From Saccharofermentans sp. (GTDB taxonomy: Bacteria; Bacillota; Clostridia; Saccharofermentanales; Saccharofermentanaceae), in assembly GCA_024685385.1 (NCBI GenBank), contig JAIKVV010000081.1, positions 1 to 64,000 on the forward strand: a stretch of DNA of 64,000 nt. Direction: 5' to 3'. The position numbers and the translations under genes are program-made. Shown piece by piece: positions 1,687 through 29,712 of the stretch. The notes beneath the pieces were generated by a model. That model ran no database searches. It saw only the letters and a list, made by a program, of their open reading frames with translations, and had not been told where the DNA came from. Every line of letters starts with the position of its first letter. Within the stretch, counting starts at the first letter, position 1.

Positions 1687-1726
1687 CGCGTTCCATCCTC
1701 CGTTTCTCTTCAGGATTCGGGGACAG

Positions 1727-8319: not shown

Positions 8320-11300
8320 TTATGCTTTTCCTTTTACGAGCTTATCGTACTTGTAGATGAAGGTGATTGTTTGGCGGCGCAGGCACTTGCCGTCAGGACG
8401 GAATGTGCCGTCACTGTATCCTGAAAGGATTCCCTTTTCGGATGCCCAGAGAGTCGCTTTGTAATAATATACGCCCTTCTTGAGATCCGAGAAGCGGTTC
8501 GTTCCTGATTCGGGAGCAGGTTTTCCTGCCAACCTCCAGAGGAAAGTCACTATGTGCTTTCTCTCGCACGCATTCTGCGGTCTGAAGGTCTTGTCCTGAT
8601 AACCTTCAACGATATGGTTTTCATAGGCCCAGATACAGGCTTTATAGAAAAAATCCTTTGAATCCACATCCTTAAATCTGCAAGTCTTTGCTTTGGGCGC
8701 AGGCTCTCCCTGAAGCCTCCAGATAAAAGTGATCGCCTGAGCTCTTGTGCACTTGTTGGAAGCCTTGAACAGAGTTTGGTTGTCGTAACCCTTTACAACA
8801 CCTGCTGCAGAAAGATAATTTGCAGGAACATACCAGAATGCAGTCGTATCAGTCAGATCCTTAAAGAGAACCGTGACGACACACGATGCGCTCTTTCCGG
8901 CTGCGGATGCGGTTATCGTAACAGACCCTGCTTTCTTTGCAGTGACCTTACCTGAAGCATCGACTGCTGCGATGGCAGGATTTGAAGACTTCCATGTAAT
9001 CTTCGAAGTTGAACCCTTAAGATCAACTTTCAGTTGGATACTGTCTCCACATACGATTGCCGCATTTTTCTTATCAAGAGTCAGCTTTACGTCAGGTTCT
9101 GTCTTTTTCTCCTTTATGGTATAACTGACCTCACAGTTGTCGGGCAGGGTGTAGTTGGGGTTGGAAAGAGCAATTGCCCTTGCCTTATGTTCTCCAACAT
9201 CACTGCTTCCGCCTTCGACTGTAACGTCACATTTGTCATTTCCTGTAAGACCTTTTACTGCAGCAACAGGACAATGAACCTTGCCGTCGTATGTAAACAC
9301 GGTGTTTGTCCAGGTCAATGTTATCAACTTGGGCTTTATGGTAATTTTGACCTCTCCGCTTACCTTATAATATCCGCCGTTCTTGTCTACGATCGTGACG
9401 GTTGCCGTGCCGGCATTAACATTATCAGAATAACGGATCTCATATTCACTCTGAGGGATGATCGTTTCACCGTCTTTAACACTCAAAACGGCGGGAGTAA
9501 CCGCTTTTCCGCAATAAGTGAACAGATCTCCTTCAAGTTCGATCACGGGATCAGTAACTGTCTTGACCTTTGTCCACTCAGAGCCGACGAAAACATCCGA
9601 ATCCGGCATAGTAATAGTGTACGAAGGATCAGATCCCGAGATCGTGGCGTTGTCAGCCTTATATCCCTCGAAAACATGATCATCACGGTCAGAGTGGGCA
9701 AGAGTTATGTTTACTTCGTCTCCTGCACCGAAATAATAGACTTCGCCGCAAACGATGCCTGACGGATATACTTTAATGCCGCTGACATTGTATTCTCTTA
9801 CAGCCGATGCTGAAGGAAGTGTAACGTTAACCGATACATAACTGTCTGCTGCATTTATACTGTGCTTTGCCTTGCCCTGAGGCTTACCGAAAACAACAGT
9901 ATAGAAACTGTCAGTAACAAGACCTTTATCGCCGCGGAAGAAAGTCGAACTGCCGTCGGAAGATACATAAGTCTCTCCTTCACTCAAAGACTTCGGAGCA
10001 TATATGCTGTCAGAGATCGTAAGATCTCCGCTGCTTTGACCTATGAATCCGGCACAGGAAGTCGTGGAAGCTGTTGTAAGGATCTTTCCTTCGAACACGC
10101 AGCCCTTGATAACGACATCACTGCCTGATTCGCATGTTCCGATCAAACCGCCGTGAGCGCCTTCTCCGTTTACGTCAGATATGATCACAACAGCACTTAC
10201 ACAATTTACGATCTCGATCTTGCCGCAAGCCTTGCCGATGATGCCTGCGGCGTTCTTGGCTGATGCATTGACAGTTCCGCTGACATAAAGATTCCTGATA
10301 ACAGTCTCGTTTCCATCGTTGCCTACTGTGCAGAAAGGCGAAACATACTGAGCTCCGGTATATGTCACTGTCAGTTTGTGACCCGATCCGTCGAAAGATC
10401 CCAGGAAGGGATATCTGCTTCCGACCATCGTCGTAACGGAAATATCATTTTCCAGACGGAACCACAGTCCTGATGTCTTGCCGCCCTTTGAAACATAATC
10501 AGAAAGTTCATTCCAATCATCAGTGGTTTTGATGAGATAAGGTACCGACTCTGTGCCGCTTCCGGTAAGGGACAGGGAAGGTTCATAATCACTCAGGACG
10601 CCGTTTTTTGCAGTTAAAGTGAAGACGCCGCTGTCATCGGATGAGATATATTGCATCTGACCGTCATCCGATGCAAAGAGTAGTTCATCTATCCTCTTTC
10701 CTTCCTTCGTTGCCGAGAAAGTAAAGATTTCGCCGTCTGCCACATAGATCCTGCCGCCATACCAGATACCTGTATCTCCGATAAGAGTCAATTCGATCCC
10801 GTTTTCTGACCTCAGATCACAGGCAAGCTTGCCTCCGTTCTTCCAGCCGGAATCATTCTTCGAATGTACATAGTAAGAATTAGTAACCGGCACGCTATTT
10901 GACGAGACCGATCCCGTTCCGATAGGGTAACTGTTATTGCCAAGATCGAGACAGTTAATGATCGAAGGAGTGGGATTATAACCGGATCCTCCCCAGAAAG
11001 ATGCAGCGCTCTGAGACGAAACATTGCTGAAATTCAAACTTCCGGCAAAGATGCTGTTCTTTATCGTTGTCGAAGACTTATAGCCGTTCTTGATAAAGCC
11101 TGCACATCCGTTCTTGAGGCTTGTCAGGTCAGCTGAAACAATACAATTATCGATCAGATTCGTTCCATCGGCAGTCATCGCGATTCCTGCGCATGCTCCT
11201 GCCTTTGCCGAACCTGCAACCTTAAGGTTTTTGATCGTTGTGTCCTTGATGTAAATAAAAGGCGCAAAGGTCTTATCGTCACTGCTATTGAATTTCAGGG

Positions 11301-15037: not shown

Positions 15038-17515
15038 TTATCCCAGTCTTGCTATGGTTACGCCGGCATCTCCTTCGCCGATCTCACCGTCCCTGTAACT
15101 TACTATCCTCGTATCGCCGTCCAGATATTCTGCGACAGCAGACCTTAAGGCTCCCGTTCCCTTGCCGTGTACGATCCTGACTTCCCTTTTGCCTGCGAGA
15201 GTGCAGTCATCGATAAACTTACCCAGTCTTGATACGGCCTCATCACAAGTATTTCCTATGAGATTGATCTCGGATGAAGTCGTAAGACGGTTATCGAAAA
15301 GCTGTTTCCTCTCGACTGCTTTTGTCTTGGGCTCTTCCCTTCTCTTTGCCAGAGTCTTGGCCTGTTTCTTCTGTTCTCCCGTCGGCATGTAAAGATCCTT
15401 GATCTTGACATCGCTGGTAAGGGCTCCCTGGGCAACGCGCACTTTGCCCCTGTTAGGTTCGGATATTACTTTGGCAGTGATGCCGAGCGAAGGTATGTAA
15501 TACATATTTCCGACAATGATTTCCCTTGCGGGTTCACCTGCAAGCGCAACCCTGTCAGATAAGTCATCTGCTGCCTGTCTGCCGTCGATATCGGATATGC
15601 CCGAGCGGAGCCTTCTTCTCACTTTATCTGCTTCCGCTCTCGCATCCTTGGCATCATCTTCCCTGATCTTGCGGTTGATCTCTTTTATGAGTTCATCAAG
15701 TTCGCGTTCCTTGTCTTCAAGGACGGCTCTCTCTTCGGATCTCATATCGTTGAGAATCCTGGTCTTGGATTCTTTGAGTTTTCTTTTTTCCTCATCAAGC
15801 TCACGTTCCTTCTCGGCTATGCGGCGGTTTATCTCCTCGTTCTCGAAACGCAGGCGCTCGGCTTCGCGTGAATCGTCCTCGGCTTTTGTAAGAAGAGCTC
15901 CGAAGGACAGTTCATCCGCAGACATGTTCTGCCTTGCATTGGCTATGACCTTCTTCGACAGCCCGAGTTTTTCGGAGATGATGAACGCATTGGAAGCGCC
16001 GGGTCTTCCGATTATCAGCCTGTATGTAGGCGCCAGGGATTCCGTATCGAATTCGCAGGAAGCATTGCAGATGCCTTCCTGAGTGATCGCGTAACTCTTG
16101 AGTTCCTTATAGTGGGTCGTAGCTACCGTCGCACAGCCCTTGGCGCGGAGTTCATCCAATATGGCGATGGCAAGAGCCGCGCCTTCCGTGGGATCCGTGC
16201 CGGAACCTAACTCATCAAGGAGCACCAACGATCTGCCTCTTACATTCTTTAGGATGAAAACGATATTCGAAATATGCGCAGAGAATGTCGATAAGCTCTG
16301 CTCAATGCTCTGCTCGTCGCCGATGTCCGCAAGGACCTTATCGAATACTGCGACTTTCGACCCTTCCTTTGCAGGTATCATGAGTCCTGCCATGGTCATG
16401 AGAGTAAGAAGACCGCATGTCTTAAGACAAACCGTCTTACCGCCGGTATTGGGTCCCGTTACGACGAGAGTGTCGTAATCTTTTCCGACTGCAACATCAA
16501 TGGGAACGACGCGGTCAGCAGGAATGAGCGGATGACGGGCCTTTATGAGATCCAATGATCCGTCTTCGGCAAGAGTCGCAACTGATCCTTCCATCCTTGA
16601 TCCCAGCTGCGCTTTGGCGCAGGCAAAATCGAGCTCTGAAAGAACAGTTATATCAGCTGATATGAGTTCTCTGTTGTCTGCGATCTTTGATGTGAAGACA
16701 TGGCAGATCCTCTCTATCTCAGCCTCCTCGCGGAGCGCGAGTTCCTTTATCTTATTGTTGGTCTCGACAACGCTCATCGGCTCTACGAATATCGTCTGCT
16801 CAGACTGGGACGACCCGTGTATGATGCCGTCTACTCTTCCCTTAAAATCCGCAATAACGGGGATACAGTATCTGCCCTCCCTGATCGTGATTATCTCTTC
16901 ACGCAGAAACTCGCCGTGCTTTGCAATGACACGGTCTAAGAGGACTCTTATGCTCCTTGCAAGATCCTTCTTTTCGCGTCTGATCGACATGAGATCGGAA
17001 CTTGCATTGTCAGCCATCTCCTCGGGACCTAAGATGCATTTCCTTATGTCGGCAAGAAGGCTGTCACACCCTGATACGGACTGCATTCTGGAGATAAAAT
17101 TAACTGCATCTCCCGTTATGCCTGAATCAGCAGCATTATTTCCTTTCTCCCTTACAGCTTTGATACACTCGAAAAAGGAAGCAACATCAAGGAGCTCTGC
17201 CATGGATAAGGTTCCGCCTGCAGCAGCATAGGAAAGTCTGGACCTGATGTCGGTCCCGCACGAAAGCGGGGGCATGTCGAATTCAGCGATATATGCAGCT
17301 GCATCTCTCGTTTCTTCGAGCCTCGCTCTTACATATTCTTCATCATTGGAAGGGCAAAGATCCATGCAGATCTCCATGCCGTAAGGAGTCCTGCTCATGG
17401 AAACAAGCTCCTCCCTGATCTTGGGAAACTCCAGAGTCTCCAGGACCCTGCCCTTAATGAGGCTCTTCGCCCTCTTCTCTTCAAATGTCATGTATTCTGA
17501 TATCGGTTCAGACAT
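15038..17515 (-). CDS. mutS2: Endonuclease MutS2
   Basis: MutS-like ATPase with a nuclease tail. Family roles include blocking homologous recombination and rescuing collided ribosomes. Order: MutS core/clamp (residues 1-320), ATPase with Walker A VTGPNTGGKTVCLKT (about 330) and Walker B LVLLDELGSGTDPTEGAALA, a long Glu/Arg-rich coiled coil (about 500-630), and a C-terminal Smr nuclease domain starting INLIGNTCDEAV with IVHGKGTGALR. Length about 825 residues fits the family. I take the start at ATG 17515 (MSEPIS), which has AAAAGGG six bases before it, over an ATG six codons upstream that has no ribosome site. Confidence 0.95.
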   Translation of the reverse strand: MSEPISEYMTFEEKRAKSLIKGRVLETLEFPKIREELVSMSRTPYGMEICMDLCPSNDEEYVRARLEETRDAAAYIAEFDMPPLSCGTDIRSRLSYAAAGGTLSMAELLDVASFFECIKAVREKGNNAADSGITGDAVNFISRMQSVSGCDSLLADIRKCILGPEEMADNASSDLMSIRREKKDLARSIRVLLDRVIAKHGEFLREEIITIREGRYCIPVIADFKGRVDGIIHGSSQSEQTIFVEPMSVVETNNKIKELALREEAEIERICHVFTSKIADNRELISADITVLSELDFACAKAQLGSRMEGSVATLAEDGSLDLIKARHPLIPADRVVPIDVAVGKDYDTLVVTGPNTGGKTVCLKTCGLLTLMTMAGLMIPAKEGSKVAVFDKVLADIGDEQSIEQSLSTFSAHISNIVFILKNVRGRSLVLLDELGSGTDPTEGAALAIAILDELRAKGCATVATTHYKELKSYAITQEGICNASCEFDTESLAPTYRLIIGRPGASNAFIISEKLGLSKKVIANARQNMSADELSFGALLTKAEDDSREAERLRFENEEINRRIAEKERELDEEKRKLKESKTRILNDMRSEERAVLEDKERELDELIKEINRKIREDDAKDARAEADKVRRRLRSGISDIDGRQAADDLSDRVALAGEPAREIIVGNMYYIPSLGITAKVISEPNRGKVRVAQGALTSDVKIKDLYMPTGEQKKQAKTLAKRREEPKTKAVERKQLFDNRLTTSSEINLIGNTCDEAVSRLGKFIDDCTLAGKREVRIVHGKGTGALRSAVAEYLDGDTRIVSYRDGEIGEGDAGVTIARLG

Positions 17516-17625
17516 ATATATCCCTTTTCTCATTAGATCTTACTGCCATTGATTATATCAAAGAATCACTTTGAATTCCCGTATCCTGCCATATCAGAAG
17601 TTCCGCTAATGTCTCAGGTGAGAAT

Positions 17626-17878: not shown

Positions 17879-20539
17879 TCAGCCTTTACCGTTTACGAAC
17901 TTATCGTACTTATAAAGGAAAGTTACCATCTGACGCCTTAAGCAATTGTTCTTGGGTCTGAATGTTCCGTCTTCGTAGCCTGCGAGGATCTTCATGTCGG
18001 ATGCCCAAAGAGTTGCCTTGTAGTAGTAATCTGTCTCATTTACATCGGTGAACTTTTTGGCGTTCTTGCCGGGCGCAGGCTTGCCTGCCAGCCTCCAGAG
18101 GAATGTTACGGTCTGTGCTCTTGTGCAGACTTTCTGAGGTGCGAACTCCTTAGCGGATACACCTGTGGTAATGCCCTTCTCGGTTGCCCAGATAACGGGC
18201 TTATAGAAATAGTCAGTGGATTTGACATCATCGAATTTGCACTTATTCGACTTTGTCTTGGGCTCGCCCTGGAGCCTGTAGAGGAAAGTAACCATCTGTG
18301 CACGCGTGCAGTTGTTGGCGGGACGGAACTCTGTCTGGTTGGCATAGCCCCTGACTACGCCCTTGGCCGTCAGATAATTTGTCGGAGCATACCAGAAATC
18401 GGATTTATCCGTTACATCCTTATAGAGCACCGTGAGCTTGCACTTGACTGACAAACCGTCAGCCGAAGCAGTTATGGTGACAGTGCCTGCCATCTTGGCC
18501 GTGATCTTGCCGTTGGAATCAACCGTAGCTATCTTGCTGTCAGAAGACTTCCAGTTGATCTTTGAAGTAGAATTCTTCAAAGATGCTTTCAAGGTCAATG
18601 TCTTGCCGCAGACGACAGTTGCTTCTTTCTTATCGATAGACATCTTATCGGTAATGAGCTTAACGTTCTTGTCAGTTGCAAATCCCTGCACGGCGCGAAT
18701 AGCGATATCCAATAGAGAACCTTCCATGGCAGCGTAGAACACTTCACCCGATATACCCGTGTTGCCTTCTTTATATGCCTTGTAAAGATATTTGCATCCT
18801 GAAATATCAAGTTGTGAGATCTGATTCGTATGGCAGATCAATATCTTGAGGGCAGGATTGTTGCTGATATCAAGTGAAGTAAGCTTATTGTTATAGCAAT
18901 AGAGCTCTTCAAGTTTGGTATTCTTGCTGACATCAAGGTTATAAAGGGGATTCCTGCTACTTCCGCATGCAAGGATACGAAGATCCTTACAGTTGCCGAT
19001 ATTAAGCACTGCAACAGGGCTGCTGTTGCAGTTGATCATCTTCAGTTTTGTATTCTTTGAAAGATCAAGCACATGGACGTCTGAAGTTTGAACAATCAGT
19101 TCCTCCAGTTCTGTAAGGTAGCCGATCCCTTCGACCGTATGAACGTTGCTGCCGCTTGCATTGAGTTCCTTTAACTGGTCGATCTCAAGCTGTCCGAGCC
19201 AACCGTTATTGTCAATGTCATAACTGGCGATCTTTTCCCTGAAAGCGCTGTCGGGAAAGTTCTTTTCGTTGATCTCAACTACCTTGTCTGAAACATCGTT
19301 CTTCGTAACAATTGTTACTTCGTCATCGATCGCCAGATAACACTCTGTCCCGTTTATCTTATCGCTATAAACGCCGCCGTTATAATCAGGCTTAAAGTGT
19401 TCCTGAGAGCAGACTGCAACAAGCCAGGGATTATAACTGATATCAAGTTCAGCAAACAGGTTGTTTTGGCATGGAAGTCTACGCAACGCGGGAGATTTTG
19501 TAAGATCCAGTTTTTTGATCTGATTATTAGCGCAACTCAAAAGTTCGATCTTGTTGTTCAGTTTGATCGTATCGATCCGGTTGTTAGCGCATATCAGTTC
19601 CTTAATGCCTGTGTTGCTGATATCCAAAGAAGTAAGAGCGCAATCAAGGCATTCGAGTTTTTCCAATTTCATACATCCGCTGACATTAAGAGATGTCAAT
19701 TCTTTACTGGATTCACAATTAACAGATTGAAGTTCAGGCAGATCATTCAGGATAAGTTTATCAAGTTTGTTTCCATAACAATTCAACCATTTAAGTTTCT
19801 TACATCCGCTGACATTAAGAGAAGTCATACTGCTGTTTCCATTGCAATAAAGCTCTTCAAGTTTTGTATTCTTGGAAAGATCAAGTGATGTAAGACTATA
19901 TAAATATCCGGCATCAAGCCTGAGAAGTTCCGTGAAAAAACCGATCCCTTCCAACGAAGCAGGCTTCCCGATTGATTGAACTTCGATCTTGGTTACCAGT
20001 TTAACTTCATCTTTTGTAAGCTTATTGTCGGCTCTTAGATCATAGTTCTCCTTAACATAATTTCTGAACAACTCATCAGGGAAATTTGTTTCATTGATCT
20101 CTGCAACCAATGTCTTATCCGTTACATCCTTCAGGCTTACTTTCGTATCGTTACGAGATGTGGGGCTTGTCGATGTATAGACCTTAAAATAGTATGTTCC
20201 CGCCGGAAGGATCCTTGTCAGGGAAAAATTATACCAATCAGCTCGAGACGCCTGTCCATATTTATCTGTTATAAGCGAACCCTCGTCCTTATTATCCTTA
20301 TATAGTTTTACTCCGGATGATATAACACCCGAGGAACTGAACTCCACCATTTTTTCTGATGTGGCAACATACTTAAACCACCAGGTAGTATCCTTTTTAT
20401 AATCAACCGCAAGGGTCTCGCCGATCTTGATCTCAGCATCCTCATCTGCGCTTACGGTCTTGGAAGGCAGCATAACAATACCCGCTGCGATTACCGAAGA
20501 CATCAAAAGAGCTGCAACAAACAAAAAGCACTTCTTCAT
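17879..20539 (-). CDS. Leucine-rich-repeat surface protein with SLH anchor
   Basis: About 886 residues. Signal peptide (MKKCFLFVAALLMSSVIAAG...), a pre-peptidase-like beta domain (about 35-130), two runs of LRR units (LTSLDLSKNTKLEELYCNGN style, with Cys/Asn ladder), each introduced by an EINE-NFPD(S/E)-FR motif, then a BIG2 domain (about 620-700) and three SLH domains (GVVRGYANQTEFRP, GVSAKEFAPQ, GYEDGTFRP). The SLH repeats anchor it to wall polymer; the LRR surface is exposed. I start at ATG 20539, with CGGGAG upstream; a TTG ten codons earlier lacks a ribosome site. The truncated protein at 2.2-3.3 kb is a close relative. Likely a host-, fibre- or partner-binding adhesin, by inference only. 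Confidence 0.9.
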   Translation of the reverse strand: MKKCFLFVAALLMSSVIAAGIVMLPSKTVSADEDAEIKIGETLAVDYKKDTTWWFKYVATSEKMVEFSSSGVISSGVKLYKDNKDEGSLITDKYGQASRADWYNFSLTRILPAGTYYFKVYTSTSPTSRNDTKVSLKDVTDKTLVAEINETNFPDELFRNYVKENYDLRADNKLTKDEVKLVTKIEVQSIGKPASLEGIGFFTELLRLDAGYLYSLTSLDLSKNTKLEELYCNGNSSMTSLNVSGCKKLKWLNCYGNKLDKLILNDLPELQSVNCESSKELTSLNVSGCMKLEKLECLDCALTSLDISNTGIKELICANNRIDTIKLNNKIELLSCANNQIKKLDLTKSPALRRLPCQNNLFAELDISYNPWLVAVCSQEHFKPDYNGGVYSDKINGTECYLAIDDEVTIVTKNDVSDKVVEINEKNFPDSAFREKIASYDIDNNGWLGQLEIDQLKELNASGSNVHTVEGIGYLTELEELIVQTSDVHVLDLSKNTKLKMINCNSSPVAVLNIGNCKDLRILACGSSRNPLYNLDVSKNTKLEELYCYNNKLTSLDISNNPALKILICHTNQISQLDISGCKYLYKAYKEGNTGISGEVFYAAMEGSLLDIAIRAVQGFATDKNVKLITDKMSIDKKEATVVCGKTLTLKASLKNSTSKINWKSSDSKIATVDSNGKITAKMAGTVTITASADGLSVKCKLTVLYKDVTDKSDFWYAPTNYLTAKGVVRGYANQTEFRPANNCTRAQMVTFLYRLQGEPKTKSNKCKFDDVKSTDYFYKPVIWATEKGITTGVSAKEFAPQKVCTRAQTVTFLWRLAGKPAPGKNAKKFTDVNETDYYYKATLWASDMKILAGYEDGTFRPKNNCLRRQMVTFLYKYDKFVNGKG

Positions 20540-20732
20540 ATTATTTCTCCCGAAAATGAAAACCTTCAAACTTTAAACCCATCTTAAAGAGTATATCATG
20601 ACAAGCCTTTTTTCGTCATCTGCTGCAGAAAAAACAGACCGTCCAGCCAGTTTCCCGGGCTGATACGGCCTGCCATGTGATTGATTTATTCCTTACCGGA
20701 CAAATAAATTCCCCCTTGAGAGCTTAATGTCC

Positions 20733-20804: not shown

Positions 20805-22577
20805 TCAGTCTCTGCCTAACTGTGCGCGGTAAGTCTCGATCAGGAGCTTATACTCTTCGGGAAGTTCGACGCGGGACTTGTCGTTGACCTTAAGACCCAG
20901 ATCGGAAGTGGAATCATTGACATCGTTTATGAGCCTGCCTATGGCAACGATGAAATCCATTGCGATCTTGGCGCTTATATCATCGCCCTTGCCGGAATAT
21001 ATCTCGATCGACTTGTTGAGGTAATTGATCGTCTCCTTATATTCGGCAGTGTTGTATTTATCGTTTGCAAGAGCTTTGATCTTGTTATCGACAAGACCTT
21101 CGAAATCACCCTTGTTATATTGTGCCCTTGCCTTGAGAGATGCCGCTTTGGGATTGACGCTGCTGAGAGACAGGATGCGGTCGGCATATCCTTCTGCTTC
21201 GCTCATCATCTCGGCTTTGTCGAGTTTTTCGACAAGAGAATCAGTATGGATGGGATAGATAGTCAAAGCGGCATCGTAATTCTTTGCAAGGAAGAATGTT
21301 TCCGTCAGACCGAAGTAGACCGATATCAACGCAAACAATGCAACAAAGAGTACGACGACCGAACGTGTATATACCTTGATCTCCTTATATCTGTTTGTTG
21401 CAAGAAGAACGATGAATACATAACCCATGCCGATGAACTGCAGATCCGGATTGAAGAGCAGATGAAGTGCGACCAGGACTGCCGGGATGAACTTTTCGGG
21501 CTTCCTGATGATCTTCTTCATTGCGAAGAAAAGGCATACGAGAGCGACAACGAGCGGAAACCAGCCCGTATCGAGAGCAAGCTGCATATATTCGTTATGA
21601 ACATACTGTGTGCTGTAAGCTCCGGTCTGAAATGCTCCCAGGTTTTCCTCATAGCCCTTGAATCCCAAACCTACGGGGTGTGACAGGATGACGGGGATCG
21701 AATCCTTCCAGTAAAGGAGCCTGCTGATGAAAGGCATGCCGTCAAACAGTCTTGCCATATATCTTCCAGCAATGCCGATGCTGTCCTTAAGAGCGGCAAC
21801 TATACCGATCAAGACTGCAAATACTGCTGCCAGCGAAACGAGAGCGATCGTAAGCTTCTTGCTCTTCATGACGATTATTATGACAACGATCGATATGATC
21901 CAGAGAGCGATCGTAACTATGCTTCCCGAAAGGAAGATGCCGCAGGAAAGGATTGCAGCTGTTATGATCTTGATGATGCTGACATTCTCTTTATCACTTA
22001 AGAGTATGATCGCAAATCCTGCAAGACAGAAGATCGCGAAAGTCTCGGGATCTTTCATGAAGCCTGCAAGTCTTCCGGACATGATGAACGTTTCCTTTAA
22101 TGAAGGGATCAGGGCAAGAAGTCCTGAGAGGACCGTCATTATGGCTCCGATGAAAGGGATATCTCCGAGGAGCGTCTCACGGCCTTTATCGTCCGTCATG
22201 TGAAGCGCGATCGCAAACAGGGGCCACGAGAGGAACTTGACTATTCCGAAAGGAGCCATGCCCTTATCGACAGGCCATATGAGCGTAAGGAAGAGGAAAA
22301 AGAGAAATACCGTCAGGAAAGCGATGACGGGATCTGCCGGGATCCTTATCGCTTTTACGATCTTGATCCTCTTCCTGTTATATTTCTCATCTTCATACTC
22401 GACCTCGACATCTCTTGTCATGTACATATAGATGATCAGAGCGAGTAAGAGCAAAGACACGATTGCCGATACCAGGGGCTGTGTCCCTCCGATACAAAAG
22501 AGCGATAATACGAATATCACCCTTAAGATGTTCAGTTCCTTTGCCGTATCCTTGATACGAAGTACATCATTTGCCAT
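20805..22577 (-). CDS. O-antigen ligase/polymerase-like membrane protein
   Basis: 590 residues with about eleven membrane spans (residues 15-430) and a C-terminal cytosolic or external helical domain (about 440-590, TPR-like, EMMSEAEGYADRIL). The loop HPVGLGFKGYEENLGAF...YVHNEYMQLALDTGW is the Wzy_C/WaaL signature. Members move a polyprenol-linked glycan onto another glycan, a lipid or a protein outside the membrane. It starts 4 bases after the LRAT-PPTase gene, so it is the last gene of the lipid operon. That suggests the acyl lipids made by the operon are joined to, or are acceptors for, an envelope glycan. Precise reaction unknown. Confidence 0.8.
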   Translation of the reverse strand: MANDVLRIKDTAKELNILRVIFVLSLFCIGGTQPLVSAIVSLLLLALIIYMYMTRDVEVEYEDEKYNRKRIKIVKAIRIPADPVIAFLTVFLFFLFLTLIWPVDKGMAPFGIVKFLSWPLFAIALHMTDDKGRETLLGDIPFIGAIMTVLSGLLALIPSLKETFIMSGRLAGFMKDPETFAIFCLAGFAIILLSDKENVSIIKIITAAILSCGIFLSGSIVTIALWIISIVVIIIVMKSKKLTIALVSLAAVFAVLIGIVAALKDSIGIAGRYMARLFDGMPFISRLLYWKDSIPVILSHPVGLGFKGYEENLGAFQTGAYSTQYVHNEYMQLALDTGWFPLVVALVCLFFAMKKIIRKPEKFIPAVLVALHLLFNPDLQFIGMGYVFIVLLATNRYKEIKVYTRSVVVLFVALFALISVYFGLTETFFLAKNYDAALTIYPIHTDSLVEKLDKAEMMSEAEGYADRILSLSSVNPKAASLKARAQYNKGDFEGLVDNKIKALANDKYNTAEYKETINYLNKSIEIYSGKGDDISAKIAMDFIVAIGRLINDVNDSTSDLGLKVNDKSRVELPEEYKLLIETYRAQLGRD

Positions 22578-22581
22578 AGTT

Positions 22582-23595
22582 TCATTCCTTCACAATCTTC
22601 CCTTCAGCAGGGAAATAATATCTTATCTTTTTCGGTGTTGCCGTATTTACCGAGACTATATATTGCGCGCCGTTTACTTCGACCTTGCTTGTTATGCAGC
22701 CTGCTGCCGAAGATTCGGTCTTTTCGGGACGGAAAGATTTGGAATAAGTGCTCTTGAAGATGCTCTCCTTGCGGGTCCACACCCTCTTTAAGTATTCCTC
22801 TTTCTTTTCCTCAGGAAGTTTATCATATTCTTCCCGTTCTGTGTCCGTAAGAATCTTTCTTTCTATCATGGGATCCACTTTACGGTCTGCGGGCTCTATG
22901 TCTATTCCGCATGCCGACTTGGATACTGCGACTGCAACTGCGCCCTCGGCATGGGATAAAGAGAAAAAGCACTTGTCCGACTGCCAGATACCGTTCTCGT
23001 CACGCTTGGGGGAGACTTTATCCATATTAAATCCCAGGGATCTGTCGATTCCGTAAGTAAGGAGATTCCAGTCTGAGATCATGTTCTCTCTGACTTGGGG
23101 ATTCGAAACATTTTCTATCTGGACCTGGCGCTCGGCGGGTCTTATGTCACCTGAAGCCGTACGGTAAGGCGTCGGCGCGACATAGACATCTATCAGGGGC
23201 ATGTTTCGGAAGAAAGACCTCACGGACTCTTCCTGGGAAGATTCCTTCTTCCCGAACATGCACTCGTTGACGAAATGCTCGCAATTGTTATGGAGGATGT
23301 TATATCCCCTCTCACCGATCCTTGCTCTTGCCGCTTTTACTGTCTCATCGGGACTTTTACGGTCGAACCGCTCCTTGATCGAAAGATCCGCGCATTCCAT
23401 GAAGCCGCCTGCAAGGAAACCCTGCCAGTCTGTAACGCAGACTTCTATCTCGTCATCTTTCCTGATGACGGATACCGGCGGAGGACCGAACTCGATTATC
23501 TCGTCGTCAGACGCATATATACCGTAGTGATAGAGTTCACGCACCTTGACGCGGATCATATCACCATACTTAGGTTCTCTTAGGCTCCACTTCAT
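22582..23595 (-). CDS. LRAT-type acyltransferase domain fused to 4'-phosphopantetheinyl transferase
   Basis: 337 residues, two domains. Residues 8-115 are LRAT-like: GDMIRVK, HYGIY with the catalytic His at 23, and the invariant NCEHFV with Cys105. The second conserved His of the family seems replaced (IIEFGPP, Glu35). Residues 170-337 are an Sfp-type 4'-phosphopantetheinyl transferase: FSLSHAEG (211-218), GIDIEPAD with metal-binding Asp232/Glu234, and WTRKESIFK (273-281). The PPTase should put the phosphopantetheine arm on the operon's two carrier domains. The LRAT thiol may take or pass acyl groups. It overlaps the ACP gene by ATGA and precedes the O-antigen-ligase-like gene. I know of no standard family with this fusion. 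Confidence 0.85.
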   Translation of the reverse strand: MKWSLREPKYGDMIRVKVRELYHYGIYASDDEIIEFGPPPVSVIRKDDEIEVCVTDWQGFLAGGFMECADLSIKERFDRKSPDETVKAARARIGERGYNILHNNCEHFVNECMFGKKESSQEESVRSFFRNMPLIDVYVAPTPYRTASGDIRPAERQVQIENVSNPQVRENMISDWNLLTYGIDRSLGFNMDKVSPKRDENGIWQSDKCFFSLSHAEGAVAVAVSKSACGIDIEPADRKVDPMIERKILTDTEREEYDKLPEEKKEEYLKRVWTRKESIFKSTYSKSFRPEKTESSAAGCITSKVEVNGAQYIVSVNTATPKKIRYYFPAEGKIVKE

Positions 23596-23843
23596 GCTTT
23601 CTTCTTCTGGATATAGTCGATGACTTCACCGACATTATTGAAATCGCCGAAGCTTACGTCATCGAATCTTATATCGAAAAACTCCTCCATCGCGATTACC
23701 ATGTAGAGCAGGTTGATCGAAGACATTCCGAGATCCGTAAGAAGGTTCATGTCTTCCGTTATGTCCTCGGGATCGATCTTAGCATCAGGTACTGCCATTA
23801 CATAGATATCACGGAGTTTTGCAAGTATATCTGTTCTTTCCAT
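23592..23843 (-). CDS. Acyl carrier protein
   Basis: 83 residues, acidic, with the carrier motif DLGMSSINLL; Ser42 is the expected phosphopantetheine attachment site, with Ser in place of the usual Asp just before it. The protein is too divergent to be the housekeeping AcpP and sits among acyl ligases and acyltransferases, so it is a dedicated carrier of this operon. It starts 7 bases after the acyl ligase gene, and its stop overlaps the start of the LRAT-PPTase gene, which would modify it. Family knowledge gives the role; partner choice is inferred from gene order. Confidence 0.9.
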   Translation of the reverse strand: MERTDILAKLRDIYVMAVPDAKIDPEDITEDMNLLTDLGMSSINLLYMVIAMEEFFDIRFDDVSFGDFNNVGEVIDYIQKKKA

Positions 23844-23850
23844 ACCAATC

Positions 23851-25353
23851 TCACTTCCTGATCTTCTTCATTGCAGGGGTTCTGGGGAAATCCTCTTCCC
23901 TGATAACGATGGAAGTCACTCTCTGGTAAGAAGGCAGGGTCATGTTGACCTTCTCGAGCTCGGATTTGATGTAGGCATTCTTGTCTTCAGCTTCAATGGC
24001 TGCGACAACTGCTGCTCTCGGGAATACTTCGAGCTTGAGCTTGCCGTTTTCTTCGGATACCATGGCATCCTGTACGAAATCGGGCTCTACGAACTTGTTC
24101 TCGATCTCCTCGGGAGAGATATTCTCGCCTGTGGAAAGGACAATGATGTCCTTGATCCTGCCTACGATAAAGATGAATCCTTCATCGTCGATCCTTACGA
24201 GGTCGCCTGTCTTAAACCAGCCGTCCTCATATGCTTTCTCATTCTCCTCGGGGTTGCCTGCGTAACCCAGCATCATGTTGTCGCCCTTGAGCCAGAGCTC
24301 GCCGTCAACGACCTTAAGAGTCTGGTTGGGGTATGCAAATCCGACGGATTCGGGATACTTATCGCATTCGCAGTTACCGGAAACAAGGTTTGCGGATTCC
24401 GTAAGACCGTATCCGGGATAGAGCTTTGTTCCGAGTTTTGCATATTCCTTAACGAGGTAAGGAGGAACAACGGAAGCGCCGCAGATGATGGTCTCGAGCT
24501 GGCCGCCGAAGATCTGGGGGCCCATCATGCGGGAAACATTAAGTGCGAGTTCTGCAAGAGCGGGAACCAGGATGAGGTCTGTGGGACGGAACATGGCCAT
24601 CTCACGGAACATCTCCTTGTTGTTCCTTACGACATGCAGGAAGCTTCCTGTTGCGATCGAAGTCAATGTATTTCTGATGAGGCCGAAAACATGGGTCATG
24701 GGAAGCACGATCATGTAGCGCTTGCCGAATACATGCTTATAGCCCAGGCAGCCGTTGTAGGTTCCGGTCATCATTGCCTTGTGTGAAAGTATGGCGCCCT
24801 TGCTCTTGCCGGTCGTGCCGCCTGTAAACATTACGCAGCAGGGAGTCTCGGATGCAGGATATATCATGCCGGGATCATTTGTACCTGCTGCCATGTTATC
24901 GATATATTGGGTATTGGGGTTGGTATTCTTTGCGAATGCAACCTTCTCTTCAAGGGATGCATCATAGATCAAAGCCTTGAACTTAAAGCCCATCGTAATT
25001 CCGTAAACAGTCTTGTCATCCAGCTGTACGGGCATGAGGATGGCAACTGCTCCCATGGTGGTAACGGCAAAGAAAGACTTGATGAATTCATAGGAATTCG
25101 GCATGTAAACGCCGACCATGTCGCCTGCGGCAACACCTGCTTCGGACAGAGCCGCGCGCAGGGAAGCGATGTCTTCATCCAGCATTGAATATGTCCTGGT
25201 GCTGCCGTCTTCTACAGCCGCAGCATCACCGTACTTCTTTACACAGTCCTCCCACATCTCGGATACATTGCCGTACCTCACGATCTTTGCAAGATCCTCG
25301 GGGTCCATGTACTTTTCGAAAACATTCTCTTTGATCTCATAAAGCTGTTCCAT
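23851..25353 (-). CDS. Acyl-AMP ligase (ANL superfamily), stand-alone
   Basis: About 500 residues of the adenylate-forming superfamily. Motifs: FTGGTTGKSKGAILSH (P-loop, near residue 175), YGLTES, WFKTGDLVRIDDEGF and the C-terminal hinge GRIKDIIVLSTGENISPEE. The C-terminal Lys (TPAMKKIRK) is the usual catalytic one. It activates a carboxylic acid, most likely fatty acyl, and hands it to a thiol; with an ACP gene 7 bases downstream, the acceptor is probably that ACP and not CoA. ATG at 25353 with GAGGTG is preferred to a GTG three codons earlier. Confidence 0.88.
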   Translation of the reverse strand: MEQLYEIKENVFEKYMDPEDLAKIVRYGNVSEMWEDCVKKYGDAAAVEDGSTRTYSMLDEDIASLRAALSEAGVAAGDMVGVYMPNSYEFIKSFFAVTTMGAVAILMPVQLDDKTVYGITMGFKFKALIYDASLEEKVAFAKNTNPNTQYIDNMAAGTNDPGMIYPASETPCCVMFTGGTTGKSKGAILSHKAMMTGTYNGCLGYKHVFGKRYMIVLPMTHVFGLIRNTLTSIATGSFLHVVRNNKEMFREMAMFRPTDLILVPALAELALNVSRMMGPQIFGGQLETIICGASVVPPYLVKEYAKLGTKLYPGYGLTESANLVSGNCECDKYPESVGFAYPNQTLKVVDGELWLKGDNMMLGYAGNPEENEKAYEDGWFKTGDLVRIDDEGFIFIVGRIKDIIVLSTGENISPEEIENKFVEPDFVQDAMVSEENGKLKLEVFPRAAVVAAIEAEDKNAYIKSELEKVNMTLPSYQRVTSIVIREEDFPRTPAMKKIRK

Positions 25354-25371
25354 GTCATACACCTCGTATCA

Positions 25372-26022
25372 TCATTTATTACTTGTAAGCTCTCTCAGCA
25401 AAAGCATCTTCTCGGTAAGGTCAGATGTAACCTTCTGAAGGTCTGCCATGGGAAGCATACGCCCGTCTTCGCCGTAGGCGTAGATGGGTTCTCCTATTGC
25501 CGCCCTCATCCTGTGAAATACGTTCTTTCGGGGTGCTATATAGACCGGGATTATCGGCACTTTACAGGATGCCGCCAACAGAGCTGTACCAAGTTTAAAT
25601 TCTAACATATTCTCGCTGTCCTTTACAATATGACCCTCTGGGTATATGGCCACGAGACGCCCGTCCTGCGTGTATTCGCGGATCTTGGCCAGATAGGATG
25701 TATCAGCGGGATTTTCGGTATCGACTTTAATGCACTGACCCATGCGAAGGATCAGTCTCATCAAGGCGGAATGATCGTATATCTCTTTCCTTGCAAGGCA
25801 GTGGATCCTGCGGTAGCAGATGACCGTAAAGATCTTGACGGGATCGATGAAGCCCTTGTGGTTCGTTGCGATGATCCCCCCGCCCCTTATCTTCTTCTTC
25901 GCTTTATCGTTTTCGAAAATGACCTTCGGGCGGAAGAGCAGCAATGTGGGGATCCCCGTGAGGATCTTTACTATATCGAAAGCAAGATATCTGTATCTGA
26001 AAAGGCGCCCGGGCTTGGTCAT
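25372..26022 (-). CDS. PlsC-type lysophospholipid/glycerol acyltransferase
   Basis: 216 residues, single acyltransferase domain. The catalytic NHKGFID (His55, Asp60) matches NHx4D, and YPEGHIV is the substrate-binding EG motif. It places an acyl group on a lysolipid or related alcohol at the cytoplasmic membrane face. The N-terminal hydrophobic helix (about 15-33) docks to the membrane. It overlaps the next acyltransferase gene upstream by ATGA. Two adjacent acyltransferases suggest the sn-1 and sn-2 steps of one lipid, or two different acceptors. Confidence 0.88.
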   Translation of the reverse strand: MTKPGRLFRYRYLAFDIVKILTGIPTLLLFRPKVIFENDKAKKKIRGGGIIATNHKGFIDPVKIFTVICYRRIHCLARKEIYDHSALMRLILRMGQCIKVDTENPADTSYLAKIREYTQDGRLVAIYPEGHIVKDSENMLEFKLGTALLAASCKVPIIPVYIAPRKNVFHRMRAAIGEPIYAYGEDGRMLPMADLQKVTSDLTEKMLLLRELTSNK

Positions 26023-26669
26023 TTGCTGCCTCCCTTCTCGATGAGGGAAAGTTCGATGACCTTGTCGCGCATGGCGCGGGAGACATGATCTATGTTCTCT
26101 TTCTCGGATAAGGAAGGATCTGAAAGTTCTTCAGCCGTAAAAGGCTTGCCTATGACGGCGCGGCACCTCTTGCCCGGATTTTTGAAATACATGCCGTTCG
26201 TATAAACGGGGATGACGGTGACGCCCGTCATCAGAGCAAGGTATGCAGCGGAAGGCTTAAATTCCAAAGGTCTTTCTTCTTCCGGGAGAGGAAGCCTTGC
26301 TTCGGGAAAGATGCCTACTATTCCGCCTTCTTCCAGGATATCCGCGGATTCCCTTAAGAAAGTAAAATCCTTGGCGGTCCTGTCGACTGCGATGCAGCCC
26401 AGGCCTCTTAAGAGAGCTCCGACAACTTTTTTGTTCATCATGACCTCTGCAGCCTGCCATCTTACGATCCTGAAGGGGAAAAGGAAGAGCATGAGGGCAA
26501 AATCGATGAGCGATGTGTGATTGCAGATGATTATCAAGGGTCCCTTGATCTTAAAGCGGCTCATAGCGCCTTCCTGATATATGACCTTCTCGTGGAAAAG
26601 GATAAGTTCGGGGATCAACCCCGTGATCTTTACAAATGCATTTACGAAACAGATCCAGGCTTTTTTCAT
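26019..26669 (-). CDS. Second PlsC-type acyltransferase
   Basis: 216 residues, same fold as the neighbour but only distantly similar. NHTSLIDF gives His51 and Asp56 of NHx4D; the third motif is FPEARLP, so the usual Gly after Glu is Ala. N-terminal membrane helix MKKAWICFVNAFVKITG. It starts 7 bases after the ligase-ACP gene and its stop overlaps the next acyltransferase start, so the two products are made in step. Acyl donor is inferred to be the operon's acyl-carrier thioester. Confidence 0.87.
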   Translation of the reverse strand: MKKAWICFVNAFVKITGLIPELILFHEKVIYQEGAMSRFKIKGPLIIICNHTSLIDFALMLFLFPFRIVRWQAAEVMMNKKVVGALLRGLGCIAVDRTAKDFTFLRESADILEEGGIVGIFPEARLPLPEEERPLEFKPSAAYLALMTGVTVIPVYTNGMYFKNPGKRCRAVIGKPFTAEELSDPSLSEKENIDHVSRAMRDKVIELSLIEKGGSK

Positions 26670-26676
26670 GCTCGGG

Positions 26677-28641
26677 TCACATCCTGCTTCTCAAATATCC
26701 GCAAAGGCCGGATACCGTCGTAACGCCGGCAGCGTCCTTGGCTACATCTATTCCGAATTCGTCCCTTATGCCGGACAGCATGGAGAAATAATCAAGGCTC
26801 GATCCGCCGAGATCGGAAAAATAGTCCGCATTTGCAGTAACGCCGTCCTCGGAGATATTGAGGGAATTTGCGACCACCCTTCTTACTCTGGAGATCAGCT
26901 CAGCCGAGAATTCCTCGGCATCGGCTTCCATTGTGTCAGGTGTTATCTTGCGCATGGTGCCTGACTTATATCTTTCGAGGATGCCCTTGCGGTTCTTCTT
27001 GAATTCAGACTCGCCCATGATCTTATCGGGCGTGAGAACGATTCCCGATACCTGCTGTCTGATACCGGTCTTGCCGAGTTCTTCCTCAGCCGAAGCTCTG
27101 GTCTTCTTGAGCGCATCCACATCGGCATACATCGGGACCTGAACGATCAGGACGGGCATTACCTCTCCCCTGTCATTGGCAGGACCGATGAGGCAGACAT
27201 CCTGGGCGCCGTCTATGTTAAGCCTGTTTTCGATCTGCTCGGGGCTTATGTTTTCGCCCGTACGGCAGATAATGAGGTCGTCGGCCCTTCCGTCCATAAA
27301 ATAGCGGCCGCCTTCTTCCCTGACAAAATCATTGGTGTTATAAGATCCTCCCTCGCCGAATTCCACTCTTTCGCCTTCTTCGAAGACCGCGGAAGCATGG
27401 GAAGGGCCCGTTACCTTAAGGACGCCGTCTTCGCCGATATTGTAGCCGACGCTCGCGAAAGGCTTTCCGATCGAACCCGTGATCCTGTCATTGGACTTCA
27501 TGGACAATTCGAAAGACGTGATGCCTATCTCGGTCGCGCCGTAACCGTTAGCCATATGATATCCGATGCCGTTAAAGAACTTTAAGACTTCAGGGCTAAT
27601 GGCGCTGCCGCCGGATATGAGGAAGACTATGGAATCGCCGAAGATGTTCTGTCTTATCTCGGCGAAAGCCTTCTTTATTATGATCTTCGAAAGCAGGGAT
27701 TCAGTTCCCTTGCGGTTCACCAGATCCAAAGCCTTCATGAACTTGCCGTAAGTCTCGGGCCCGCGGTTTTTGATGGTCTTTATCGCAGAATCGTATATCC
27801 TGTTCCAGAGCAAAGGAACGGAGAAGATATGCGTTACCTTGTGCTTCCTTGCAGTATAAAGGAGCGTATCCGCTGAATAATCCTTAAGGAATACGAATGT
27901 CCTCGAAAAGAATCCGAACCACATGTACATGGCCGAAAGCCCGTAGATATGGTAAAGCGGCAGGAAAGCAAGTTGCTTGATGTATCCGTCGACATGCTTT
28001 TTGACCTGGAGACATTCCTTTATGACGATGCCGCTGTCTGCTATCTGATGGTAGAAATTTATGCCGTTATATTCGCAGAGCTTGATCTTGCCGGAGGTTC
28101 CGGATGTCATGAGGAAGATCGAATCGGACCATTCTTCCGGAGTTTTTCCCGGAACGGGATTATCCTTGGAAGCAAAGAGGCTTTCGGCCTTGATCAGTTT
28201 GACGTCAAAATCAGCCTGTGACTCAGTATTTGAGTCGATAACAACCGCATCCGCCCCGTAAACTTCAAGCAGATGGCTTATCACTGCTTTATCGGTCATG
28301 GTATTAAGGAGCAAAGGCGACTTTCCGCACATCAGGATGGCCCAGAACACTTCCACCCACTGCTCGGAATTGGACATATAAAGACCGACTTTATCACCCT
28401 TGCAAGCTTCAAGTTCCGGCTTGAGATTGGATGCGCAAAGATCGCAGCGCTCCTTGGCCTGCCCGTATGTCGTGCGCATGATCTTGAAGCCGTTATTGGT
28501 CTCCGCGAAGATATTTTCCTTCTCGGAGAACATGAAAGGATATAGGTCAAAGAATCTCTTGTCTGTCTTGTTATATTCTGACAGCTTCCCTTCAACGAAG
28601 CTGTCAATGTCCTTATATCCGCCGATGCCGTATACCTTCAT
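26677..28641 (-). CDS. Acyl-AMP ligase fused to a C-terminal carrier domain
   Basis: 654 residues: an adenylation domain of the fatty acyl-AMP ligase/ANL type (about 20-560; MTSGTSGKIKL P-loop, NGYGATEIGIT, DGRADDLIICRTGENISPEQ) followed by a phosphopantetheine carrier (about 575-654) with DLGGSSLDYF, Ser615 modified. Activated acid is loaded on its own carrier. Only one adenylation and one carrier domain and no condensation or reductase domain are present, so this is not a standard NRPS. It starts 15 bases after pfkA ends. It is the entry enzyme of the operon; the second, stand-alone ligase with free ACP repeats the same chemistry. Confidence 0.88.
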   Translation of the reverse strand: MKVYGIGGYKDIDSFVEGKLSEYNKTDKRFFDLYPFMFSEKENIFAETNNGFKIMRTTYGQAKERCDLCASNLKPELEACKGDKVGLYMSNSEQWVEVFWAILMCGKSPLLLNTMTDKAVISHLLEVYGADAVVIDSNTESQADFDVKLIKAESLFASKDNPVPGKTPEEWSDSIFLMTSGTSGKIKLCEYNGINFYHQIADSGIVIKECLQVKKHVDGYIKQLAFLPLYHIYGLSAMYMWFGFFSRTFVFLKDYSADTLLYTARKHKVTHIFSVPLLWNRIYDSAIKTIKNRGPETYGKFMKALDLVNRKGTESLLSKIIIKKAFAEIRQNIFGDSIVFLISGGSAISPEVLKFFNGIGYHMANGYGATEIGITSFELSMKSNDRITGSIGKPFASVGYNIGEDGVLKVTGPSHASAVFEEGERVEFGEGGSYNTNDFVREEGGRYFMDGRADDLIICRTGENISPEQIENRLNIDGAQDVCLIGPANDRGEVMPVLIVQVPMYADVDALKKTRASAEEELGKTGIRQQVSGIVLTPDKIMGESEFKKNRKGILERYKSGTMRKITPDTMEADAEEFSAELISRVRRVVANSLNISEDGVTANADYFSDLGGSSLDYFSMLSGIRDEFGIDVAKDAAGVTTVSGLCGYLRSRM

Positions 28642-28656
28642 CTGAGATCCCCGGTC

Positions 28657-29712
28657 TTACGATAATCTCTTGGCGTCAATGATGAAGCTCTCGGGGATCG
28701 TCTTGGTCATCTCGAGGCCTTCTTCGATATCGACATCACCGATCTTGCCGTCCTTCTCGACGATAAGCCTGTTGAAACGCTTTTCGAGAAGGCAGTCGAT
28801 CGCCCTGATGCCCATAAGGCTTGCTGTCGTTCTGTCACGCAGCGTGGGGCTGCCTCCGCGCTGGAGGTGGCCCAGGATCGTAGGCCTGGATTCGATGCCC
28901 GTAGCCTCTTCGATCTGCTTTGCGATATCTGTCGCTTTGCCTGCGCCTTCAGCAACGATTACGACATAGTGCTTCTTGCCGCGGTTCCTGCCGTCAAGGA
29001 TTATCCTTAAGACATCCTTGTTGAAATCGAAAGGAACTTCAGGAATGAGGATCGCTTCCGCGCCGGTCGCGATGCCGACGTTAAGAGCAATGTAGCCTGC
29101 TCTTCTTCCCATGACCTCGATGACGCTGCATCTTTCATGGGAGGATGCCGTATCTCTCAATTTATCTATGCATTCCATGGCCGTGTTCATAGCCGTATCG
29201 TATCCGATCGTGTATTCGGTCGATGCTATATCATTATCGATCGTGCCCGGCATGCCGATAACGGGGATCCCGATCCTTGCAAGAGCTCTTGCTCCCTTAT
29301 AGGATCCGTCGCCGCCGATTACTACCAGCGCATCGAGCTCATAAGCTTCCATCATGCGGGCGCCCTTAAGGACTCCCTGATCTTCCATGAAGCTCATGGA
29401 CCTTGCAGTCATGAGGAAGGTGCCGCCTCTCTGGAGAGTCTCGGATACCGATCTGCCGTCAAGCTGCTTGATCTCGCCCTTCCAGAGGCCGTGATATCCG
29501 CGCTGAACGCCGTACATGTCAAAACCGGCATTAAGGCCTGCCCTGACGACAGCCCTGATGGCTGCATTCATTCCCGGAGCATCTCCTCCGCTCGTAAGAA
29601 CGCCTACGCGCTTTACGGGTTCGACGGTATCCTTATCGATCTCATCGTAGTTAACTGCCTTAAGAGAAGATATAGGCGGGAGATTGTTCTCGTCATATAA
29701 AAGTCTGGACAT
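28657..29712 (-). CDS. pfkA: ATP-dependent 6-phosphofructokinase
   Basis: Phosphorylates fructose 6-phosphate at the control point of glycolysis. 351 residues with the core from residue 34: GVLTSGGDAPGMNAAIR, GGDGSYKGA (Gly at the ATP-deciding position), MPGTIDNDI (Gly instead of the Lys of pyrophosphate enzymes), and MGRRAGYIA. Both positions say ATP, not pyrophosphate. The 33-residue N-terminal extension is unusual for bacterial PfkA. ATG at 29712 with TGGAGGTG upstream. The next gene begins 15 bases downstream, so this glycolytic gene appears to head the lipid operon, perhaps linking glycerol-phosphate supply with acylation. Confidence 0.95.
   Translation of the reverse strand: MSRLLYDENNLPPISSLKAVNYDEIDKDTVEPVKRVGVLTSGGDAPGMNAAIRAVVRAGLNAGFDMYGVQRGYHGLWKGEIKQLDGRSVSETLQRGGTFLMTARSMSFMEDQGVLKGARMMEAYELDALVVIGGDGSYKGARALARIGIPVIGMPGTIDNDIASTEYTIGYDTAMNTAMECIDKLRDTASSHERCSVIEVMGRRAGYIALNVGIATGAEAILIPEVPFDFNKDVLRIILDGRNRGKKHYVVIVAEGAGKATDIAKQIEEATGIESRPTILGHLQRGGSPTLRDRTTASLMGIRAIDCLLEKRFNRLIVEKDGKIGDVDIEEGLEMTKTIPESFIIDAKRLS

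What the first reader, a model, noticed from the sequence alone, without database searches (positions are those of the whole stretch)
20805..28641. Self-contained acyl-carrier pathway operon ending in an O-antigen-ligase-like protein
Seven genes in a row with gaps of 4-18 bases or ATGA overlaps: ligase-ACP fusion, two PlsC acyltransferases, ligase, ACP, LRAT-PPTase, and a Wzy_C/WaaL-like protein. It has its own fatty-acid activation, two carriers, the enzyme that modifies them, two acyl transfer steps and a possible glycan step, but no reductase, ketosynthase or condensation domain. That fits neither fatty-acid synthesis nor NRPS/PKS. Inferred product: an acylated envelope lipid or glycolipid made from exogenous or recycled fatty acids.
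Basis: partly seen in the sequence, partly recalled or inferred. Interest (0 to 1): 0.82.

Follow-up and report, generated by a model that had tools for sequence, protein, structure and literature searches.

The report
Fatty-acid scavenging operon of gut bacteria
A compact set of genes that probably lets gut bacteria load scavenged fatty acids onto their own carrier proteins and build membrane lipids from them; versions of it are shared across several bacterial phyla, and most of its carriers appear to have lost the ability to make fatty acids themselves.

Summary
The seven-gene row is real and strand-consistent (gaps 4-9 bp, two ATGA overlaps). It is conserved whole in two congeners, but only 3 of 188 genomes of the order carry it. 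The block g1-g7 plus an SLH surface protein is inserted between PFK and mutS2, which are adjacent in 19 of 19 operon-less congeners examined.

Relatives of ligase g4 lead to clusters in rumen/gut Clostridia, Bacilli, Spirochaetes and one Mycoplasmataceae MAG. The recurring core is PlsC-PlsC-ligase-ACP-LRAT, often with the ligase-ACP fusion, a PPTase, MFS_2 transporters, alpha/beta hydrolases and fatty-acid kinase FakA/FakB. The Wzy_C gene is in none of 39 such clusters; elsewhere in the genus its homologues mostly sit among secreted LRR proteins, so it probably belongs to a surface-protein module.

Most carriers lack fatty-acid synthesis genes: FabD is missing in 33 of 38 and FabF in 19 of 23, including the window's MAG (27% of the class lacks FabF).

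Best reading: a split, ACP-dedicated Aas-like system that activates scavenged fatty acids and esterifies them into glycerolipid, plus a PLAAT-like enzyme of unknown reaction. New variant of a known kind; nothing was tested biochemically.

The parts
26677..28641 (-). g1: AMP-forming acyl ligase fused to a C-terminal acyl carrier domain (phosphopantetheine Ser in DLGGSSL)
   Evidence: Pfam AMP-binding 1.7e-39, PP-binding 1.7e-8; 80% identical in G054; in 24 of 39 homologous clusters
26019..26669 (-). g2: PlsC-type acyltransferase, HX4D and PE(A/S/G)R motifs
   Evidence: Pfam 7e-19; N50 H51 D56 invariant in 16 homologues; in 30 of 39 clusters
25372..26022 (-). g3: second PlsC-type acyltransferase, HX4D and PEG motifs
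   Evidence: Pfam 1.3e-18; profile matches Thermotoga PlsC 5kym, E 1.2e-14; motifs invariant in 15 homologues; in 36 of 39 clusters
23851..25362 (-). g4: stand-alone AMP-forming acyl ligase, probable acyl-ACP synthetase; the gene on which the search was centred
   Evidence: Pfam 4.6e-55; tree clade of 41 rows with SH-aLRT 100 spanning Clostridia, Bacilli, Spirochaetes and Mycoplasmataceae
23592..23843 (-). g5: stand-alone acyl carrier protein (Ser42 in DLGMSSI)
   Evidence: Pfam 5.8e-9; Ser42 invariant in 7 homologues; in 38 of 39 clusters
22582..23595 (-). g6: LRAT/PLAAT-like domain (about 1-145) fused to an Sfp-type phosphopantetheinyl transferase domain (about 150-337)
   Evidence: Pfam LRAT 2.3e-17 and ACPS 3.8e-11; H23 and the C105 of NCEHF invariant in 25 homologues; model pLDDT 92 matches Sfp and PLAAT2/3/4
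20805..22577 (-). g7: Wzy_C membrane protein with helical TPR-like C-terminal part; probably a surface-protein glycan transferase riding with the operon
   Evidence: Wzy_C 7.5e-14; TPR structures among weak matches; in 0 of 39 homologous clusters; homologues in other congeners mostly next to secreted LRR proteins
17879..20569 (-). LRR + Ig-like + SLH surface protein, inserted in the same block as the operon; possible partner of g7
   Evidence: Pfam SLH 6.6e-30; an SLH protein also lies downstream of g7 in G054 and G049; terminator-like stem after it at 17850-17833
28657..29712 (-). PFK (6-phosphofructokinase), border of the inserted block, 15 bp before g1
   Evidence: followed at once by mutS2 in 19 of 19 operon-less congeners
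15038..17533 (-). mutS2, other border of the inserted block

Best explanation
An operon for using scavenged fatty acids. Two AMP-forming ligases (g1, g4) load free fatty acids from diet, host or other microbes, or from lipid turnover, onto two dedicated acyl carriers (the ACP domain of g1, and g5), which the PPTase half of g6 arms with phosphopantetheine. Two PlsC-type acyltransferases (g2, g3) then esterify the acyl groups to a glycerol-phosphate or lysolipid acceptor, giving membrane diacyl lipid. The PLAAT-like LRAT half of g6 is a Cys/His acyl-enzyme, either releasing acyl chains or lysolipid from lipid, or moving acyl groups from acyl-ACP. It works like the Gram-negative LplT-Aas pair split into separate genes, beside the Gram-positive FakAB route, mostly in bacteria that appear to have lost fatty-acid synthesis. 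Shown by computation: the gene set, domains, conserved catalytic residues, clustering with FakA/FakB/MFS_2/hydrolases in relatives, and the association with missing FabF/FabD. Inferred: substrates, reaction order, ACP rather than CoA as thiol acceptor, the acceptor lipid, the role of LRAT. g7 is thought not to be part of this pathway.
For: Domains and motifs. Conserved core across several classes and phyla. Outside the genus, 32 of 39 clusters hold at least one of MFS_2, alpha/beta hydrolase, FakB (DegV), FakA within 9 kb on the same strand (families by Pfam). Carrier genomes lack FASII: FabF missing in 19 of 23, FabD in 33 of 38, class baseline 106 of 391 lacking FabF; in the class sample 6 of 7 genomes with a g4 homologue lack FabF against 100 of 384 others (Fisher p 0.002). 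The window genome has FakB-FakA-PlsY and FakB-FakA-hydrolase gene rows elsewhere. Precedents: Aas makes acyl-ACP and uses it to acylate lysolipids (PMC11416262); a dedicated ligase-ACP pair, AasR/AcpR (PMC9386255).
Against: Two carrier congeners (G049, G054) and three other carriers (G568, G573, G583) still have FabD, so the operon is not strictly a replacement for FASII. In the window locus itself no transporter, hydrolase or FakAB is linked. Most genomes are MAGs, so absences may be gaps; the window genome is 95% complete. The class comparison is not corrected for relatedness. PlsY is present in 35 of the 39 carrier genomes tested, so g2/g3 are not simply the only glycerolipid acyltransferases. 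No ligase was assayed; the best sequence matches of g4 among solved structures are CoA ligases.
Confidence: 0.62

Rival explanations
1. A dedicated pathway for a special envelope lipid or secreted acylated metabolite (for example a glycolipid or N-acyl lipid), using its own carriers to keep its acyl chains apart from membrane synthesis.
For: Own ACPs and own PPTase are typical of specialised pathways (AasR/AcpR for sphingolipid, PMC9386255); the Spirochaete clusters continue into LolA and MMPL-type transport genes; PlsY is kept, so ordinary phospholipid synthesis may run without the operon.
Against: No committed biosynthetic enzyme recurs among the neighbours examined; the recurring ones are FakA/FakB, MFS_2 and hydrolases. 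The link with missing FabF/FabD points to bulk acyl supply.
Confidence: 0.18
2. Narrow lysolipid repair: the operon only re-acylates lysolipids produced by phospholipases, as LplT-Aas does in E. coli, and the FASII link is secondary.
For: Same reaction set as Aas; MFS_2 transporter next to the acyltransferases in many relatives; two acyltransferases could serve sn-1 and sn-2.
Against: FakA/FakB next door (18 and 21 of 39) and missing FASII genes suggest intake of free fatty acids, not only repair; no transporter in the window locus.
Confidence: 0.12
3. Acylation of surface proteins or lipoproteins: LRAT acts as in the Staphylococcus LnsA/LnsB system and g7 plus the SLH protein are the targets or partners.
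For: LnsA is a permuted NlpC/P60 enzyme related to the HRASLS (PLAAT) fold and is needed for lipoprotein N-acylation (PMC7387801); in the genus the operon, g7 and the SLH gene travel together.
Against: g6 starts MKWSLREPKYGD, with no signal peptide apparent by eye, whereas LnsA is predicted to be exported; g7 and the SLH gene are absent from the other clusters; it does not explain ligases, ACPs and two PlsC enzymes.
Confidence: 0.05
4. Sub-question on g7: it is a genuine last step that adds a glycan to the lipid made by g1-g6.
For: 4 bp after g6, same strand, conserved order in three species.
Against: Absent from 39 of 39 homologous clusters; 15 further congeners, none with a recognisable operon, have a g7 homologue, in most of the neighbourhoods read beside secreted proteins; g7 has diverged much faster (46-51% identity against 75-95% for g1-g6).
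Confidence: 0.1

Closest known systems
LplT-Aas lysophospholipid remodelling system (E. coli; PMC11416262)
   Same: AMP-forming ligase that makes acyl-ACP, PlsC-type acyltransferase that uses it, and in relatives an MFS transporter next door.
   Different: Split into separate genes, two of each enzyme, dedicated ACPs and PPTase, a PLAAT-like enzyme, an MFS_2 transporter in relatives, mostly in Clostridia. The 2024 paper says LplT-Aas itself is identified only in Gram-negatives.
FakAB-PlsX-PlsY-PlsC route for exogenous fatty acids (PMC10146087)
   Same: Same purpose; FakA/FakB genes lie in many homologous clusters and elsewhere in the window genome.
   Different: Here activation is by ATP-dependent ligases, probably to ACP; the review calls ligase activation the general Gram-negative way and FakAB the Gram-positive one. 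These genomes hold both.
AasR/AcpR, the specialised acyl-ACP synthetase and carrier of rhodobacterial sphingolipid synthesis (PMC9386255)
   Same: A ligase paired with its own ACP in one cluster to direct free fatty acids into a lipid.
   Different: No serine palmitoyltransferase here; acyltransferases are PlsC-type.
PLAAT/HRASLS (LRAT-like) phospholipase A / acyltransferases; LnsA of Staphylococcus (PMC7387801)
   Same: LRAT half of g6 keeps the His and the NCEHF Cys and matches PLAAT2/3/4 folds (TM-score by target length 0.72-0.79).
   Different: Bacterial, fused to a PPTase, next to ACPs; the second His is Glu in the window and Gln, Glu, Ala or His in relatives; reaction unknown.
WsfB of Paenibacillus alvei, predicted S-layer O-oligosaccharyltransferase (PMC2943079)
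   Same: Wzy_C domain with C-terminal TPR motif, like g7, and a surface-layer-type protein gene nearby.
   Different: Activity of g7 untested; no glycan cluster is seen next to it.

Membership tests
Acyl-ACP synthetase / acyltransferase (Aas) system | AMP-forming ligase plus PlsC-type acyltransferase encoded together | tested here: met
Acyl-ACP synthetase / acyltransferase (Aas) system | Ligase and acyltransferase fused in one Aas protein | tested here: not met
   Separate genes; NCBIfam Aas models score far below their cut-offs. So it is filed as working like Aas, not as Aas.
Acyl-ACP synthetase / acyltransferase (Aas) system | Acyl-ACP (not acyl-CoA) is the product of the ligase | not testable with these tools
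   Suggested by the linked ACP (38 of 39 clusters) and PPTase only
Acyl-ACP synthetase / acyltransferase (Aas) system | Lysophospholipid transporter encoded with it | tested here: inconclusive
   MFS_2 gene in 21 of 39 relatives within 9 kb, absent next to the window operon; substrate unknown
FakAB exogenous fatty-acid system | FakA kinase and FakB (DegV) proteins in the same cluster | tested here: inconclusive
   In many homologous clusters (FakA 18, DegV 21 of 39); in the window genome present but unlinked
NRPS/PKS or fatty-acid synthase cluster | Ketosynthase, reductase or condensation domain | tested here: not met
   Pfam of all seven proteins
LRAT/PLAAT enzyme | Fold plus His/Cys catalytic dyad | tested here: met
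   H23 and C105 invariant in 25 sequences; fold match
LRAT/PLAAT enzyme | Acyltransferase or phospholipase activity | not testable with these tools
   no assay
Sfp-type phosphopantetheinyl transferase | Asp/Glu metal residues and the WxxKE..K motif, Sfp fold | tested here: met
   D232, E277, K281 invariant in four full-length orthologues; Sfp E 9.5e-11; fold match
Wzy_C O-oligosaccharyltransferase (WsfB/PglL type) | Wzy_C domain with C-terminal TPR | tested here: inconclusive
   Wzy_C above cut-off; TPR matches only weak, lowest Foldseek E-values near 0.005
Wzy_C O-oligosaccharyltransferase (WsfB/PglL type) | Linked glycan-assembly genes or glycosylated target | not tested
   only the SLH protein neighbour was seen

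The most novel reading that the evidence does not exclude
A horizontally spread lipid-assembly line that lets gut anaerobes of several phyla live without fatty-acid synthesis, in which a PLAAT-like enzyme and its PPTase partner act on a private ACP pool. The window genus would catch the change in progress: two congeners hold both operon and FASII, and the window species has apparently lost FASII.
Probability: 0.4. Interest if true: 0.8.

Novelty: new variant of a known kind. Interest (0 to 1): 0.6.

Why it matters
It bears on two open points. How do gut Clostridia that seem to lack FASII build membranes, and is there a Gram-positive counterpart to LplT-Aas (left open in PMC11416262)? It gives a marker gene set for predicted fatty-acid auxotrophy in gut MAGs, and a testable case of a PLAAT-like enzyme working with an acyl carrier protein.

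Tried and rejected
g7 as part of the acyl pathway: rejected on distribution. NRPS/PKS/FAS cluster: no matching domains. Defence system: no PADLOC match for g1, g4, g6 or g7. Replacement of PlsY by g2/g3: PlsY is present in 35 of 39 carrier genomes. Fold search for g7: only weak TPR-type hits, no membrane-domain match. Literature searches found no description of this gene set among open papers; two searches failed on term format. The tree is a quick one (SH-aLRT only), and the Mycoplasmataceae row sits on a long branch, so its exact place is unsure. The promoter scan found no more sites than shuffles.
Full report
Observation. Seven minus-strand genes lie in a row at 28641-20805 with gaps of 7, -4, 9, 7, -4 and 4 bp. 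Pfam gives ligase+ACP, PlsC, PlsC, ligase, ACP, LRAT+PPTase and Wzy_C. PFK ends 15 bp before g1.

Conservation and borders. In two congeners, G054 (one contig) and G049 (split over two contigs), the row is kept in order, with g1-g6 75-95% identical and g7 only 46-51%, followed by an SLH surface protein. PFK is seen upstream in G054; in G049 the contig ends inside g1 and the other break lies inside g6. The LRAT-PPTase gene is found in 3 of 188 genomes of the order. In 19 of 19 operon-less congeners PFK is followed directly by mutS2. The block from g1 to the SLH gene therefore sits as an insertion at that site; its restricted distribution favours gain over repeated loss.

Wider family. A search of the class with g4 found homologues of 37-60% identity in five genomes from five other families. 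A scan of named genomes returned 80 loci. Reading the neighbourhoods (tally) gives, for 39 clusters of the same g4 clade outside the genus: g5 38, g3 36, LRAT 31, g2 30, g1 24, alpha/beta hydrolase 23, MFS_2 21, DegV/FakB 21, PPTase 20, FakA 18, g7 0. Counts are lower bounds, since several contigs end inside the cluster. Component families were named by Pfam on examples. LRAT occurs without the PPTase in several clusters, so LRAT is the more constant half of g6. The g4 tree puts Spirochaete, Bacilli and Mycoplasmataceae rows inside a Clostridia-dominated clade of 41, which suggests transfer between lineages; a sister clade of Lachnospiraceae and Bacteroidota mostly keeps the ligase and ACP, some with a PlsC gene.

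Fatty-acid synthesis. FabF is missing in 19 of 23 carrier genomes at the level of a real match and FabD in 33 of 38, both including the window's genome. In a class sample 285 of 391 genomes have FabF; of the seven with a g4 homologue only one does (Fisher p 0.002), against 284 of 384 others. The ten other members of the genus in that sample all have FabF. The comparison is not corrected for relatedness and rests on draft genomes. Two carriers of the genus retain FabF and FabD, so the operon can coexist with FASII.

The rest of the route in the window genome. FakB-FakA-PlsY and FakB-FakA-hydrolase gene rows lie on other contigs. PlsY was found in the three carriers of the genus and in none of three operon-less congeners tested, a side observation on few genomes.

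Enzymes. Catalytic motifs are conserved: HX4D in g2 and g3, the carrier serine in g5, His and NCEHF Cys of LRAT, PPTase residues. The LRAT half of the model fits PLAAT2/3/4 and the other half fits Sfp. What LRAT does here is not known; PLAAT-type enzymes act as phospholipases or acyltransferases, and a related permuted enzyme, LnsA, acylates lipoproteins together with LnsB (PMC7387801).

g7. Wzy_C with a TPR-like tail resembles WsfB, a predicted S-layer O-oligosaccharyltransferase (PMC2943079). Homologues occur in 18 of 85 genus genomes. In most of the operon-less neighbourhoods read they are flanked by secreted proteins, and the five of these examined have LRR_5 domains; G147 (L202) and G038 (L134) do not show this. 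g7 with the SLH gene is best read as a surface-protein module linked to the operon in this genus; co-transcription, and so some shared purpose, cannot be excluded.

Comparison with what is known. The Aas protein of E. coli makes acyl-ACP and uses it to acylate lysolipids delivered by LplT, a pair so far identified only in Gram-negatives (PMC11416262). Gram-positives are described as using FakAB instead (PMC10146087). A ligase with its own ACP is known from rhodobacterial sphingolipid synthesis (PMC9386255). The operon combines these ideas in a set for which no description was found.

Conclusion. The operon most likely channels scavenged fatty acids through dedicated carriers into glycerolipid. 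The steps from substrate to product are inferred from families and context; none was assayed.

Noticed in passing
window 1-1970: The contig begins with a leuA-like gene at 65% GC against about 48% elsewhere: a possible chimeric contig end, contaminant piece or recent transfer.
   Followed up: no
L048 5650-10610 and L059: Spirochaete versions of the cluster continue into small exported proteins, a LolA-like and an MMPL-like gene, hinting at lipid delivery to an outer membrane.
   Followed up: partly
L090: The cluster in a Mycoplasmataceae MAG reads as fragments under table 11, as expected if TGA codes for Trp there; its PlsY also has two internal TGA.
   Followed up: no
L167, L168, L177: PlsY lies in ORFs of 412-417 aa, about twice the usual length, in several carrier MAGs.
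   Followed up: no
G001, G006, G011 against G000, G049, G054: PlsY found only in the operon-bearing members of the genus among six tested.
   Followed up: no
window 8320-12861: A second large SLH-type protein (1513 aa), similar to the SLH protein downstream of g7 in G049.
   Followed up: no
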